The translations under genes were made by a program, and so were the position numbers. A DNA stretch of 64,000 nt, from positions 1 to 64,000 of the forward strand of contig NZ_JADCDB010000008.1 of assembly GCF_020252395.1 (NCBI RefSeq), read 5' to 3'. The DNA comes from Aestuariivirga sp. (GTDB lineage Bacteria; Pseudomonadota; Alphaproteobacteria; Rhizobiales; Aestuariivirgaceae). Positions 35,229 to 39,116 of this stretch are shown here, piece by piece (positions within the stretch are counted from its first letter, which is position 1; each line of letters starts with the position of its first letter). Under the pieces are notes generated by a model that was not told where the DNA came from, made no database searches, and worked only from the letters and a program-made list of their open reading frames with translations.

Positions 35229-35538
35229 AAATGCGTTTCCCTCCCCCGTGTGGGGAGGGATTAAGGGTGGGGGTCCCCGGGCTCCAGCCTGCGCCGGGGT
35301 GACGGGCAGAGGGGGTGGGCCGCCGCTTGCCACCACAAGTTCCTTTTCCCATCCTGCGGACGGGAGAAGGGAACCGGGGGACGCACCTCCCTCTCGCCAT
35401 GACTGGACGTGATCCGGGCATCCTCTCCGGCGGCGGCAAAAGGATGCCCGGCTCGGAGACCGGGCATGATGAGGAGGGGGCGGGGCGACCAGACGCGGCA
35501 TGGCTTGACTTGCCATACTTTGTCCATACACTCCTGCC
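35229..35538. repeat. Intergenic DNA with palindrome half-element and repeat A copy 1
   Basis: No gene is supported here. About 35268-35304 resembles one arm of the repeat B palindrome (GGTCCCCGGGCTCC ... GCCGGGGTGACGG). 35348-35476 is copy 1 of repeat A, which recurs at 36257-36385 with the same 129-bp length and roughly 90% identity by eye. Confidence 0.7.
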
Positions 35539-36112: not shown

Positions 36113-36504
36113 AGGGGCGACACGGCCGTGTTTGGCTGTTCCCTTCTCCCGTTGCAAAGCAATGGGAGAAGGTGCCCGAAGGGCGGATGAGGGCCTCTTT
36201 CAACGGGCGGGACTCGCGGACAGAGGCCCTCATCCGGCTTGGTCGCGCCACCTTCTCCCATCCTGCGGACAGGAGAAGGGAGCCGGGGGACGCGCCTCCC
36301 TCTCACCATGCTCGGACGTGATCCGGGCATTCTCTCCGGCGGCGGCAAAAGGATGCCCCGCGCGGAGGCCCGGCATGGTGAGGAGTGGGATGGCCTCACG
36401 CCCGCCACGGCGTCACTCTGGCGAAGGCCGGGGCCCCGCTTTGGTTCAGCAGGGGTGGTGAGACAGCGGGGTCCCGGCCTCCGCCGGGGTGACGGACGCG
36501 AGGG
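36113..36504. repeat. Repeat-rich intergenic DNA: hairpins, repeat A copy 2, repeat B copy 1
   Basis: No conventional gene. It holds a hairpin at 36142-36172 (CCTTCTCCCGTTGC / GCAATGGGAGAAGG) and an inverted repeat of 15 bp (CGGATGAGGGCCTCT 36184-36198 with its complement at 36222-36236). Repeat A copy 2 is at 36257-36385 and the start of repeat B copy 1 at 36411. Confidence 0.75.
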
Positions 36505-36522
36505 ATGTTCCACGCCCTGTGG
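36411..36522 (+). repeat. Repeat B copy 1 (imperfect palindrome)
   Basis: 112 bp, nearly identical in length and sequence to 36952-37063. Its first ~84 bp are an imperfect palindrome with arms of about 30 bp (CGTCACTCTGGCGAAGGCCG ... GGCCTCCGCCGGGGTGACG). Its right end supplies the ATG and first six codons of the small ORF at 36505. Confidence 0.85.
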
Positions 36523-36675
36523 GACATGGTGCAGTTCCTCGGCGGCCTCTGGCAGGCCGACTTCGGCCAGCTGATCCTCATCGGCATCATCGTCAAACCG
36601 GTGATGGGCGCGGGGCTGTGGTGGTTCGTGGTGCGGAAGCGGAAGGGGTGGGGGGGTGGCCGACAGGCCGGATGA
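36505..36675 (+). CDS. Small hydrophobic protein candidate, 56 aa
   Basis: From ATG 36505: MFHALWDMVQF, then a hydrophobic stretch LILIGIIVKPVMGAGLWWFVV and a basic tail RKRKG. One membrane helix is likely. GAGGG touches the ATG, so the ribosome site is poorly spaced. The start codon and first six codons lie inside repeat B. The stop TGA lies in the dispersed CGGATGAGGGC motif. It may be a real small membrane protein or chance coding. Confidence 0.35.
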   Translation: MFHALWDMVQFLGGLWQADFGQLILIGIIVKPVMGAGLWWFVVRKRKGWGGGRQAG

Positions 36676-37120
36676 GGGCGCTGTCCACGCGTGGCAATCG
36701 TGATGCCCTCTCGCGTCGCCCGCAGTCGCTTTTGGATGCATTTTATGTTGCAAAAGCGTTGCCGCCGTAGCACCGCGGATGCCCCAAGTCGATGCAACCG
36801 GATCATGTTGCCGCAGGTGCAGTCCGGATGCTGTCGCAAACCATTTCAAACACAGCCTGCAAAACCTGCACATCGCTCCGAAAACAAAATTGACAGCGCG
36901 CGCTGTCAGACCGGCATGGCAGATCTTCGATCCGCCCCCACCCCCTCAAGCCGTCACCCCGGCGCAGGCCGGGGCCCCGCTTTGGTTCAGCATGGGTGGT
37001 GAGACGGCGGGGTCCCGGCTTTCGCCGGGATGACGGACGCGAGGGATGTTCCACGCCCTGTGGTGGAGTGGCTCGCCCCAATTCAAATCGGTTAAGTGCT
37101 GAGCAATTTGGTGCTAGTAG
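36676..37120. repeat. Intergenic DNA with repeat B copy 2
   Basis: No gene was recognised in this 445 bp. Repeat B copy 2 is at 36952-37063. Composition drops in GC just after it, where the three-gene cassette begins. Confidence 0.65.
36952..37063 (+). repeat. Repeat B copy 2 (imperfect palindrome)
   Basis: Same 112-bp unit as 36411-36522 with scattered changes (for example GGCGCAGGCC against GGCGAAGGCC). It ends 58 bp before the cassette's first start codon and so marks the left edge of the AT-richer segment. Confidence 0.85.
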
Positions 37121-37948
37121 ATGCATAATTTGACTGGCACGCAGAGAACCGAAATGTTTGAAACCCTTTATCCTGAGCACGCTATCGAGAGATGCACGGT
37201 AAGTCTCTCTTTTGATGCTCCCGTACCTGCAAAGGCGCGTGAAAAGGCCCTTTCAGCTCTAAGATCAGATCTGCAGGGGGCCGGGTTCGGAGAAGGTAAG
37301 TCGATGGGCTTTAGGTTTGGAAACATTTCTGGACAACTTAAAGTTGAGTTGGACGATGCTCCGGTAAAGTTCGAGCTGCCGTCGGGAGGTATTGAAATTG
37401 TAATTTTCCCGGATGCACTAATATACACAACGCAAAAATATGTTCGATGGCGTCCGTTCTTTGGCCAATTTCGCGAAAGCCTTTCCGGCTACATGAAGAC
37501 CGTTACTGAGATTTTATCGATGCGGGCACTGCGCCTCGAATACGTAGATCGGTTTATCTGGACCGGGAGTTGGGACGATATTGATTATGGGTCCCTTTTG
37601 AGAGCGGACTCCAACCTAATTGCGCCGCTATTCACTCAGGCGAAAAAACAATGGCACTCCCACGCCGGCTTGTTTGAGTTTCCGCGATCGGCTGAACGCC
37701 GTCTCATGCAAGTGAATGTTGACGCAACGGATGCCTTGTCGCAGAGTGGATCGCAACCTTCTATAGGTATTTTGACGTTGATCCAGGACGAGTTCATCGG
37801 CGCCAACAATTCTGAGAATCGCTTCAAAGAATTTGAAGGCTGTATGGACGCGGTCGAAGAACTACATGTTTCCAGCAAGGACTTGTTCTCCAGAGTGATA
37901 GTGGCCGATATGGCTGCGCGCATAAATTTGAATAGTAGGGGAAGTTGA
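37121..37948 (+). CDS. TIGR04255-like protein, first gene of an accessory cassette
   Basis: 275 aa (or 264 aa from ATG 37154, which has GAGA upstream). It resembles the sporadically distributed TIGR04255 family: N-terminal YPEHAIERCTVSLSF, a beta-rich central part, the hallmark LRLEYVDRF (137-145), and a C-terminal QDEFIGANNSENRFKEF region. No catalytic motif is visible and the function is unknown. GC content is clearly lower than in the flanking genes. The stop overlaps the next gene's ATG (TGATG), so it is co-translated with gene 2. Confidence 0.65.
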   Translation: MHNLTGTQRTEMFETLYPEHAIERCTVSLSFDAPVPAKAREKALSALRSDLQGAGFGEGKSMGFRFGNISGQLKVELDDAPVKFELPSGGIEIVIFPDALIYTTQKYVRWRPFFGQFRESLSGYMKTVTEILSMRALRLEYVDRFIWTGSWDDIDYGSLLRADSNLIAPLFTQAKKQWHSHAGLFEFPRSAERRLMQVNVDATDALSQSGSQPSIGILTLIQDEFIGANNSENRFKEFEGCMDAVEELHVSSKDLFSRVIVADMAARINLNSRGS

Positions 37949-38496
37949 TGAGCCACTCCCTAAGAGTCGAACGGGGTACCTCCATCCGAGGATGGGTGGA
38001 CTTGGGAGATTTTTCCGAACGCAACACCATCGCTGTTCAGCCATGGTCGTTCTTTGAGGAAGGCTTTGCTGCTTGGGAGAAGCAGAAATCGGTAAAGCCT
38101 GCGGCGACCTTGGAGGGACAGGTTGTTGAACGCTCAGCTCCTGTGGACATCTGGTTGAAGAAGTGTTTGCGCCTATTAGCCGATTATCGGAAGTTCAAGG
38201 ACGATTGGAATGGCGAAGGTGCGCCTTCTCCCTTGCCCGGTTCGCTAGATACAATCGAATGGCTGGTAAGTCTGATAGCCACACTGCCAAGCAAATTTCG
38301 TCCACAGCTAAGTCTGGACCCTCTTGGCCGCCCAAGCCTTGTTGCTCGAGACGCTAGCCGATATCTCCACTTGACTGTCGAAGAGCCGGGTAAAATTACT
38401 TGGTATTCTTGTCTGGCAGATGATGAAGATTTTGAGGATGAGTTTCCATTTGATGGAAGTACACTACCCAGAAAGCTCCGCACTTTCTTGAAGTAA
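37948..38496 (+). CDS. Unknown protein with a W-N/D-G-x-G-A motif, cassette gene 2
   Basis: 182 aa. The N-terminal half is charged with little pattern. The second half has FKDDWNGEGAPSP (WNGEGAPSP at 87-95), then TIEWLVSLIATLP, DPLGRPSLVARDASRYLHLTVEEPGKITWYS. This motif order (W-D/N-G-x-G-A, a helix ending in LP, P-x-G, then two beta strands) resembles a widespread unnamed family I recall from genomes; this is memory, not a search. No signal peptide or membrane segment. Coupled to gene 1 by overlap, 9 bp before gene 3. Confidence 0.6.
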   Translation: MSHSLRVERGTSIRGWVDLGDFSERNTIAVQPWSFFEEGFAAWEKQKSVKPAATLEGQVVERSAPVDIWLKKCLRLLADYRKFKDDWNGEGAPSPLPGSLDTIEWLVSLIATLPSKFRPQLSLDPLGRPSLVARDASRYLHLTVEEPGKITWYSCLADDEDFEDEFPFDGSTLPRKLRTFLK

Positions 38497-38505
38497 GTAG
38501 CTGCC

Positions 38506-39099
38506 ATGTGTCAAACATGCCAAGAAGCGTTCTCTGTTAAGCGTGAACACAGAGCGTCAGCAGTCCATCTAGTAAGCGGATCAGAATGTAGATGTGAGAG
38601 CCAGCAGATTTTTGAGGGTTCCCCAGGACGCGTTTCTGATGACGAATATCTCTGTATTATTATTTCAGATCCGCAATATCTGCTCCCAAATGGCAATGGT
38701 TTAGACCCTAATGCTGTTATTCAAATCGACAAAGGTGGACTAAGCACTTTGCGTTCGCAGGCCAGTATCGGTGAATTCCAGCAAACTCTAGAGGAACTCC
38801 AGCGTAGATCTAAAGAGGCTGGTAAGGAACGGTATCTACACGGAGTTTGCGTGGTTCAAGTGTCGGACGTTCGTTATGAAAACAACACGCGCTTCCTCTG
38901 TGTTTACGACACGCCCCTTGCAGGAAAACCTTATCATGCAGACATCATGGGCCCGTTGATCGCTGGTGACTCAAAGTCGCAAGTTAAGAGGAACAAATAT
39001 GAGCGATACAAGAAGCTCATAGAAGTTATCGAGAGTACGCTGACGGCTCCGGACCAGTTTAAGAATGGTGCCCTGAGTCCATTTGCAAGGCTTGGATAG
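38506..39099 (+). CDS. Unknown cysteine-starting protein, cassette gene 3
   Basis: 197 aa. It starts MCQTCQ and carries further Cys at 28, 30 and 50. Core segments are RVSDDEYLCIIISDPQYL, GGLSTLRS and KPYHADIMGP (HADI at 144-147), followed by a basic helix. The order (acidic D-E-x-L, an L-S motif, then H-A-x-I) again resembles an unnamed family often encoded after WDGxGA proteins, by recollection only. It completes a three-gene unit ending 17 bp before the uvrB stop, read convergently with it. Confidence 0.6.
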   Translation: MCQTCQEAFSVKREHRASAVHLVSGSECRCESQQIFEGSPGRVSDDEYLCIIISDPQYLLPNGNGLDPNAVIQIDKGGLSTLRSQASIGEFQQTLEELQRRSKEAGKERYLHGVCVVQVSDVRYENNTRFLCVYDTPLAGKPYHADIMGPLIAGDSKSQVKRNKYERYKKLIEVIESTLTAPDQFKNGALSPFARLG

Positions 39100-39116
39100 G
39101 ACTCCAAAGGATCTCC

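What the first reader, a model, noticed from the sequence alone, without database searches (positions are those of the whole stretch)
37121..39099. AT-richer three-gene cassette (TIGR04255-like + WNGEGA protein + HADI protein)
Seen: three same-strand genes, tightly coupled (TGATG overlap, then 9 bp), with clearly lower GC and different codon use from all neighbours. They lie directly after a duplicated palindromic repeat and end 17 bp before uvrB. Known: TIGR04255 proteins are patchily spread and uncharacterised. Inferred: a mobile accessory module, possibly a defence or stress system; no nuclease, protease or kinase motif was recognised, so the mechanism would be new. Genes 2 and 3 carry ordered motifs (W-N-G-x-G-A...; D-E-x-L / L-S / H-A-D-I) that I recall as recurring partners.
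Basis: partly seen in the sequence, partly recalled or inferred. Interest (0 to 1): 0.75.

Follow-up and report, generated by a model that had tools for sequence, protein, structure and literature searches.

The report
Unnamed mobile three-gene bacterial module
Three small genes inserted next to a DNA-repair gene turn out to be a recurring set that travels together through many different bacteria and some phage-like elements; none of the proteins has a known function, and the set is probably a defence or toxin-type system still to be described.

Summary
Gene 1 is a TIGR04255 protein (36.4 bits, cut-off 30); genes 2 and 3 match nothing in Pfam, NCBIfam, PADLOC or PHROGs. Searching with gene 3 alone gave 20 further genomes: a gene-2 relative lies directly before gene 3 in 19 of 20 by profile, and a TIGR04255-type gene before that in 18 of 20. 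Anchored on TIGR04255 instead, 7 of 11 loci hold the set; 3 have the same layout with a third gene not shown to be related, and 1 has other followers. Presence is sporadic (14 of 397 genomes of the order, own included). Here the set fills a slot between a 112-bp repeat and uvrB that holds other AT-rich genes in relatives. Gene 3 is confidently predicted (pLDDT 88) without PDB match; E47, S80, R83, R123 and H144 are identical in 28 of 28. Best reading: a mobile conflict module, gene 3 the effector, genes 2 and 1 partner and sensor. The module is shown; the function is inferred, at about even odds.

The parts
37121..37948 (+). Gene 1, TIGR04255 family protein, 275 aa (possible later start at 37154)
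   Evidence: NCBIfam TIGR04255 36.4 bits over cut-off 30. AF2 pLDDT 85.1, pTM 0.84. Y107, W110, D143, F145, H179, G183, H249 identical in 23 of 23 aligned gene 1 proteins
37948..38496 (+). Gene 2, unnamed family with WDGxGA-type and DGxxxLxW-type motifs, 182 aa
   Evidence: No family hit. Relatives directly before gene 3 in 19 of 20 other genomes by profile. G127 invariant, W87 and P119 at 90% or more in 27 aligned
38506..39099 (+). Gene 3, unnamed family ('HAD' protein), 197 aa, predicted alpha/beta fold with no PDB match; candidate effector
   Evidence: AF2 pLDDT 88.4, pTM 0.85. Foldseek PDB best E 0.79. E47, S80, R83, R123, H144 in 28 of 28, D135 in 27 of 28
37064..39116 (.). Variable segment holding the cassette: DNA on both sides is shared with two same-genus genomes that carry other AT-rich ORFs here
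   Evidence: blastn: window 36411-37063 and the uvrB end (from 39117/39123) align to G1017 (L126) and G1013 (L129), no window match between; in G1013 only 198 bp of uvrB are on that contig
36411..36522 (+). Left copy of the 112-bp repeat with inverted symmetry
   Evidence: 92.9% identical to 36952-37063
36952..37063 (+). Right copy of the repeat; its end is the left edge of the variable segment
39117..41459 (-). uvrB, the conserved right neighbour whose 3' end borders the slot

Best explanation
The three genes are one mobile accessory module in which a TIGR04255 protein, a WDG-motif protein and a protein of a fold not found in the PDB work together. Shown: they recur as a unit in fixed order and tight spacing, co-diverge, are sporadic, and sit in an accessory slot here and on phage-like contigs elsewhere. 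Inferred: the proteins form a complex; gene 3 is the effector, an enzyme-like protein whose invariant Glu, Ser, two Arg and His, with a nearly invariant Asp, would form its active site, possibly on a phosphate-bearing substrate; gene 2, its immediate upstream partner, holds or scaffolds it; gene 1 is a sensor or specificity subunit that some versions lack. The likeliest purpose is conflict: phage defence by abortive infection, superinfection exclusion by a resident prophage, or toxin-antitoxin-like addiction.
For: Gene-3-anchored genomes other than the own one, 20 in all. Gene-2 relative directly upstream in 19 of 20 by profile; in 12 of the 13 not used to build the profile applied to them (miss L007, weakest hit E 0.001). 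TIGR04255-type gene upstream of it in 18 of 20; in 12 of the 14 not used to build the gene 1 profile (misses L030, L031). TIGR04255-anchored: 11 of 150 genomes; 6 have the window-type set, 1 (G070) the set with gene 2 and gene 3 relatives supported by profile. Gene-2-anchored: 9 of 150 genomes, but 7 of these were in the profile; the 2 new ones (G070, G330) have a third gene of this kind, firm in G070, weak in G330. Pairwise distances of the three genes correlate in 23 loci (r 0.58-0.65, 0 of 2000 permutations as high). Invariant polar residues and a confident model for gene 3. Slot and integrase contexts. One cargo of the same slot in a relative has a weak SEFIR match (21.1 bits, below cut-off 23).
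Against: No defence-island signal: among 110 neighbour proteins PADLOC gave single or double hits, mostly broad models such as methyltransferases, in the 25 of 189 families shown, and no background set was run. No toxicity, immunity or complex was tested. In 3 of 11 TIGR04255 loci (G702, G715, G695) the third gene is not recognised as a gene 3 relative (hhalign E 0.09-0.1 singly) and the second only moderately (E 5.9e-7 for the three together); in G655 the followers differ. TIGR04255 has other followers on a Crinalium and a Vibrio plasmid. G330's first gene is not TIGR04255 by NCBIfam. Two-gene versions (L030, L031) sit among what look like housekeeping genes. The distance correlation would also arise from plain joint inheritance of any operon. 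Phage-likeness of the IMG/VR contigs is that collection's call, not tested here.
Confidence: 0.5

Rival explanations
1. Toxin-antitoxin-like addiction module: gene 3 toxin, gene 2 antitoxin, gene 1 a regulator or chaperone, kept because loss is costly rather than because it stops phages.
For: Genes 2 and 3 are the minimal pair: L030 and L031 have only these two, and no TIGR04255 was found in those two genomes. By mechanical ORF starts, genes 2 and 3 overlap or lie within 36 bp in the loci. On a Vibrio plasmid TIGR04255 is followed by a hypothetical protein and an annotated zeta toxin family protein.
Against: Three genes in 18 of 20; no toxin or antitoxin family among the Pfam and NCBIfam hits of the 78 module proteins at E up to 0.1. 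The zeta case is one record with a 107-bp gap and no gene 2 or gene 3 profile hit. One search had no positive control ringing, and one of its two genomes is 77% complete.
Confidence: 0.2
2. Phage-beneficial cargo: a prophage gene set serving the phage (anti-defence, lysogeny control or virion accessory) that was left behind in chromosomes.
For: Nine IMG/VR contigs carry gene 3 (two of them nearly identical there); a tyrosine integrase gene is directly convergent in L059, L060 (contigs) and L043 (genome), a weak one in L058.
Against: Only 3 of 110 nearest neighbour proteins match Phage_integrase in Pfam; other phage genes were not tallied by locus. No match in 50,697 deposited phage records for gene 1 of the window or of L065, or gene 3 of L057 (the window's gene 3 was not tried there). 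The window site is a repeat-uvrB slot.
Confidence: 0.15
3. A small metabolic or stress-response operon unrelated to conflict.
For: Two-gene versions lie beside what look by eye like housekeeping genes (L031 between a folP-like and a phosphoglucomutase-like gene, L030 beside an ftsK-like gene; each of these Pfam families matches one neighbour). Gene 3 looks enzymatic.
Against: Sporadic presence, foreign composition, variable slot, low identity (19-27% to the window's gene 3 for 24 of 27 relatives, 35-45% for three), phage-like contexts.
Confidence: 0.12

Closest known systems
NCBIfam TIGR04255 (sporadTIGR04255)
   Same: Gene 1 matches it full length over the curated cut-off. Of 78 module proteins scanned (23 of them gene 1), 22 match it at E up to 0.1.
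   Different: The model carries no function in its description. Gene 1 belongs to a subgroup with invariant H179 and with H181 in 21 of 23 (WHxH in most); no WHxH string occurs in the 7 divergent members of A23.
Candidate multi-gene phage-defence modules (as in PADLOC-DB)
   Same: Small, same-strand, tightly coupled, sporadic, in an accessory slot.
   Different: None of the three proteins matches any of 5027 PADLOC models at E up to 1; no known effector domain; no protection test.
Type II toxin-antitoxin pairs
   Same: Coupled genes 2 and 3; two-gene versions exist.
   Different: Usually three genes, no known toxin or antitoxin family, toxicity untested.
Phosphagen (guanidino) kinases, fold of gene 1
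   Same: Best Foldseek matches of the gene 1 model, E 1.7e-3, probability 0.97.
   Different: TM-score 0.36, 9% identity. The seven positions identical in 23 of 23 gene 1 proteins include no Arg, Glu or Cys, whereas kinase catalysis uses such residues (recalled, no call).

Membership tests
TIGR04255 | Whole-protein score over the curated cut-off of 30 bits | tested here: met
   36.4 bits, E 4.9e-9
TIGR04255 | Full-length alignment to the 252-position model | tested here: met
   profile 2-251, protein 17-268
TIGR04255 | Sporadic distribution | tested here: met
   11 of 150 genomes of the order (own included) at E up to 0.001, 10 over the cut-off; 0 of 14 control genomes
Known anti-phage defence system (PADLOC) | Match of any component to a described defence model | tested here: not met
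   0 families for 3 proteins at E up to 1
Known anti-phage defence system (PADLOC) | Neighbourhood rich in defence genes | tested here: inconclusive
   Scattered hits among 110 neighbours (of 346 ORFs kept around 32 loci), no control set
Known anti-phage defence system (PADLOC) | Protection against phage | not testable with these tools
   needs an infection assay
Toxin-antitoxin system | Toxic gene neutralised by its partner | not testable with these tools
   needs expression in a laboratory strain
Toxin-antitoxin system | Known toxin or antitoxin domain | tested here: not met
   No toxin or antitoxin family among the Pfam and NCBIfam hits at E up to 0.1 for 28 gene 3 and 27 gene 2 proteins
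Phosphagen kinase (fold of gene 1) | Same fold | tested here: inconclusive
   Foldseek E 1.7e-3, TM 0.36
Phosphagen kinase (fold of gene 1) | Catalytic Arg, Glu and Cys residues (recalled) | tested here: inconclusive
   None of these letters among the 7 positions identical in 23 of 23 gene 1 proteins, but no structure-based residue mapping was done

The most novel reading that the evidence does not exclude
A so far undescribed three-protein conflict system, widespread in subtypes: TIGR04255 proteins are sensors paired with a WDG-motif adaptor and an enzyme of a new fold and new active site (E/S/R/R/D/H), carried by prophages and accessory slots, and the adaptor-enzyme pair can act without the sensor.
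Probability: 0.36. Interest if true: 0.82.

Novelty: categorically new. Interest (0 to 1): 0.62.

Why it matters
It gives a named but functionless protein family (TIGR04255) recurring partners, and it defines two families that no library used here holds, one with a confidently predicted fold without PDB match and an enzyme-like set of invariant residues. If it is a conflict system, it adds an effector of unknown chemistry and a small (2 kb) construct to test. If it is not, it is still a recurring mobile operon with no assigned role.

Tried and rejected
Family libraries for the window proteins: only TIGR04255, plus one chance-level Pfam hit for gene 1, E 0.14. PDB by sequence profile: nothing useful (best E 0.4 and 0.85, judged chance). 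PDB by fold: gene 3 nothing, gene 1 weak phosphagen kinases, not accepted as membership. BFVD by fold for gene 3: one weak unnamed viral protein, A0A9E7QQI2, E 7.7e-3, not followed. tblastn without a match: window gene 1 in plasmids and phages, window gene 2 in plasmids, window gene 3 in plasmids, gene 3 of L057 in plasmids and phages, gene 3 of L030 in plasmids, gene 1 of L065 in phages. A divergent TIGR04255 (L103) found 2 plasmids. IMG/VR pattern scans gave hits without a gene 3: 2 of 10 stretches, 11 of 20, 5 of 5. The idea that gene 1 is needed everywhere was rejected by L030 and L031. The idea that TIGR04255 is always followed by these two families was rejected by L104, L136 and L137. 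Papers: 'TIGR04255' in 0 held papers; two wider searches listed nothing on this module by title and abstract start; no paper was opened. Preprints and most subscription journals are not held, so absence from print is not claimed beyond these searches.

Full report
Observation. The three ORFs, their spacing and their odd composition are as described. GC3 values of 0.51, 0.50 and 0.43 are the three lowest of 61 ORFs kept across the window. A 112-bp repeat lies at 36411-36522 and again at 36952-37063.

Identity of the parts. Gene 1 is a full-length TIGR04255 protein. Genes 2 and 3 match no model in Pfam, NCBIfam, PADLOC or PHROGs at E up to 1. Of 78 module proteins scanned against NCBIfam and Pfam (28 gene 3, 27 gene 2, 23 gene 1), 22 matched TIGR04255 at E up to 0.1; every other family appeared once, at E 0.018 or weaker.

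Do they belong together? I searched with gene 3 alone. Hits besides the own genome: 3 in a class sample of 289, 5 in a phylum sample of 398, 13 in an order sample of 397, 11 of them new, and 2 in 185 genomes of another class, 1 new: 20 genomes. In 19 of 20 a profile of gene 2 hits the ORF directly upstream; in the last (L007) an unrecognised 241-aa ORF sits there. Seven of these loci had been used to make the gene 2 profile; of the 13 others, 12 match, the weakest at E 0.001 (L041), and L007 misses. A TIGR04255-type protein precedes gene 2 in 18 of 20: 15 by profile (six of these loci made that profile), L041 and L043 by NCBIfam, L135 by a profile of divergent members. The two without it, L030 and L031, showed no TIGR04255 elsewhere in their genomes (no positive control rang, one genome is 77% complete).

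The other anchors. TIGR04255 hit 11 of 150 genomes, own included. Six have the window-type set. G070 has a supported gene 2 (hhalign E 2.8e-9) and third gene (E 4.9e-6). G702, G715 and G695 have second and third genes of the same layout, but no window-type profile of gene 2 or 3 found them; tested together their second genes are related (E 5.9e-7), their third genes are not shown to be (E 0.09-0.1 singly, 0.023 together). G655 has different followers. Reversed sequences gave E 0.12 or weaker. So the full set holds in 7 of 11. Comparing whole mixed sets gave E 6e-9 for gene 1, 5e-10 for gene 2 and 3.5e-4 for gene 3, but the gene 2 value is carried by L100 and L101. Gene 2 hit 9 of 150 genomes; seven of those were in the profile, so only G070 and G330 are new. 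G330 has a supported gene 2, a weakly supported third gene (E 6.6e-4) and a first gene that is not TIGR04255 by NCBIfam. The locus in G1039 (L135), found with the window-type gene 3 profile, joins a window-type third gene to a gene 1 recognised by the divergent profile. These samples overlap and are not independent.

Distances among the three genes correlate in 23 loci, r 0.575, 0.652 and 0.599, with 0 of 2000 label permutations reaching them; dropping the window's own clade changes little. The 23 include L007 with its unrecognised second gene, and L058 with genes 2 and 3 taken from the nearly identical L056.

Mobility. None of the 12 other same-genus genomes listed has gene 3. A uvrB probe matched 16 of 21 genomes of the genus, own included; I read seven stretches from six others. 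In G1017 the window's flank 36411-37063 and uvrB are both present, with a 425-aa ORF of GC 0.457 between. In G1013 the flank and the last 198 bp of uvrB (to the contig edge) are present, with a 370-aa ORF of GC 0.469 between. Both also hold a second 192-bp copy of the uvrB 3' end. G713 and G871 have other AT-rich ORFs beside uvrB (GC 0.486 and 0.43). G774 and G946 showed none of note, and the second G1013 stretch ends at a contig edge inside uvrB. So the cassette fills a variable slot, 37064-39116. The G1017 ORF has a sub-threshold SEFIR match and the G871 ORF an MtlR match over the cut-off.

Phage-like contexts. In IMG/VR, nine contigs carry gene 3, two of them nearly identical there; seven hold all three genes, and in two gene 1 could not be seen because the module reaches the start of the stretch. 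A tyrosine integrase gene lies directly convergent to gene 3 in L059 and L060 (contigs) and L043 (a genome), and a weak, sub-threshold one in L058. Others lie beside unrelated genes: a DNA ligase in L062, a LysR regulator in L061. Of the 110 nearest neighbour proteins of 32 loci, 3 match Phage_integrase. PADLOC shows no clear clustering of defence genes in them, though no background was computed.

Structure. Gene 3 was predicted from ten sequences with pLDDT 88.4 and pTM 0.85; no PDB chain matches (best E 0.79, probability 0.04). E47, S80, R83, R123 and H144 are identical in 28 of 28, D135 in 27, with T, D or E at 136. C28 and C30 are both present in 16 of 28. Such a set of polar residues is what an active site leaves; coordinates were not at hand to check that they cluster. 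Gene 1 was predicted with pLDDT 85.1; the best PDB matches are phosphagen kinases at TM 0.36, too weak for a claim. Gene 2 was not predicted (two jobs were allowed).

Mechanism. The minimal unit is genes 2 and 3; gene 1 is usual but not universal. I read gene 3 as effector, gene 2 as its holder or scaffold, gene 1 as sensor. The context (sporadic, foreign, slot, integrase, variable neighbours) is that of conflict systems. I put the conflict reading at about one half and keep addiction, phage-beneficial cargo and a plain enzyme operon as rivals. 'Categorically new' means that no family, fold or system tested here covers genes 2 and 3 or the set; it does not mean that a function is shown.

Taxon.

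Noticed in passing
L126 4388-4579 and L129 3684-3875: A second copy of the last 192 bp of uvrB lies about 0.6 kb beyond the true uvrB end in two same-genus genomes, as if elements insert at this gene end and bring a copy.
   Followed up: partly
L129 3884-4368 (by eye also in L126, L127, L128): A small ParE-like toxin ORF (23.3 bits, just below cut-off 24.4) and a short antitoxin-like ORF (by eye) sit beside uvrB in related genomes.
   Followed up: partly
L104 7357-8333; L136 4247-5319; L137 991-2105: TIGR04255 genes with other two-gene followers (a protein with LSNSCDI, two unknowns on a cyanobacterial plasmid, an annotated zeta toxin family gene on a Vibrio plasmid): the family may be a common front end of several modules.
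   Followed up: partly
L102, L103, L105 (G702, G715, G695): Third genes of the same place and size that share an S-x-x-W-x-E-like and a late H string by eye but are not recognised as gene 3 relatives; possibly a second effector family.
   Followed up: partly
L065 60-734: The ORF before the module on IMG/VR contig 2855927618_000003 looks by eye like the end of a phage tail tape-measure protein; Pfam gave no match.
   Followed up: no
window 35342-35480 and 36251-36389: A further 139-bp direct repeat (89%) upstream of the palindromic repeats.
   Followed up: no
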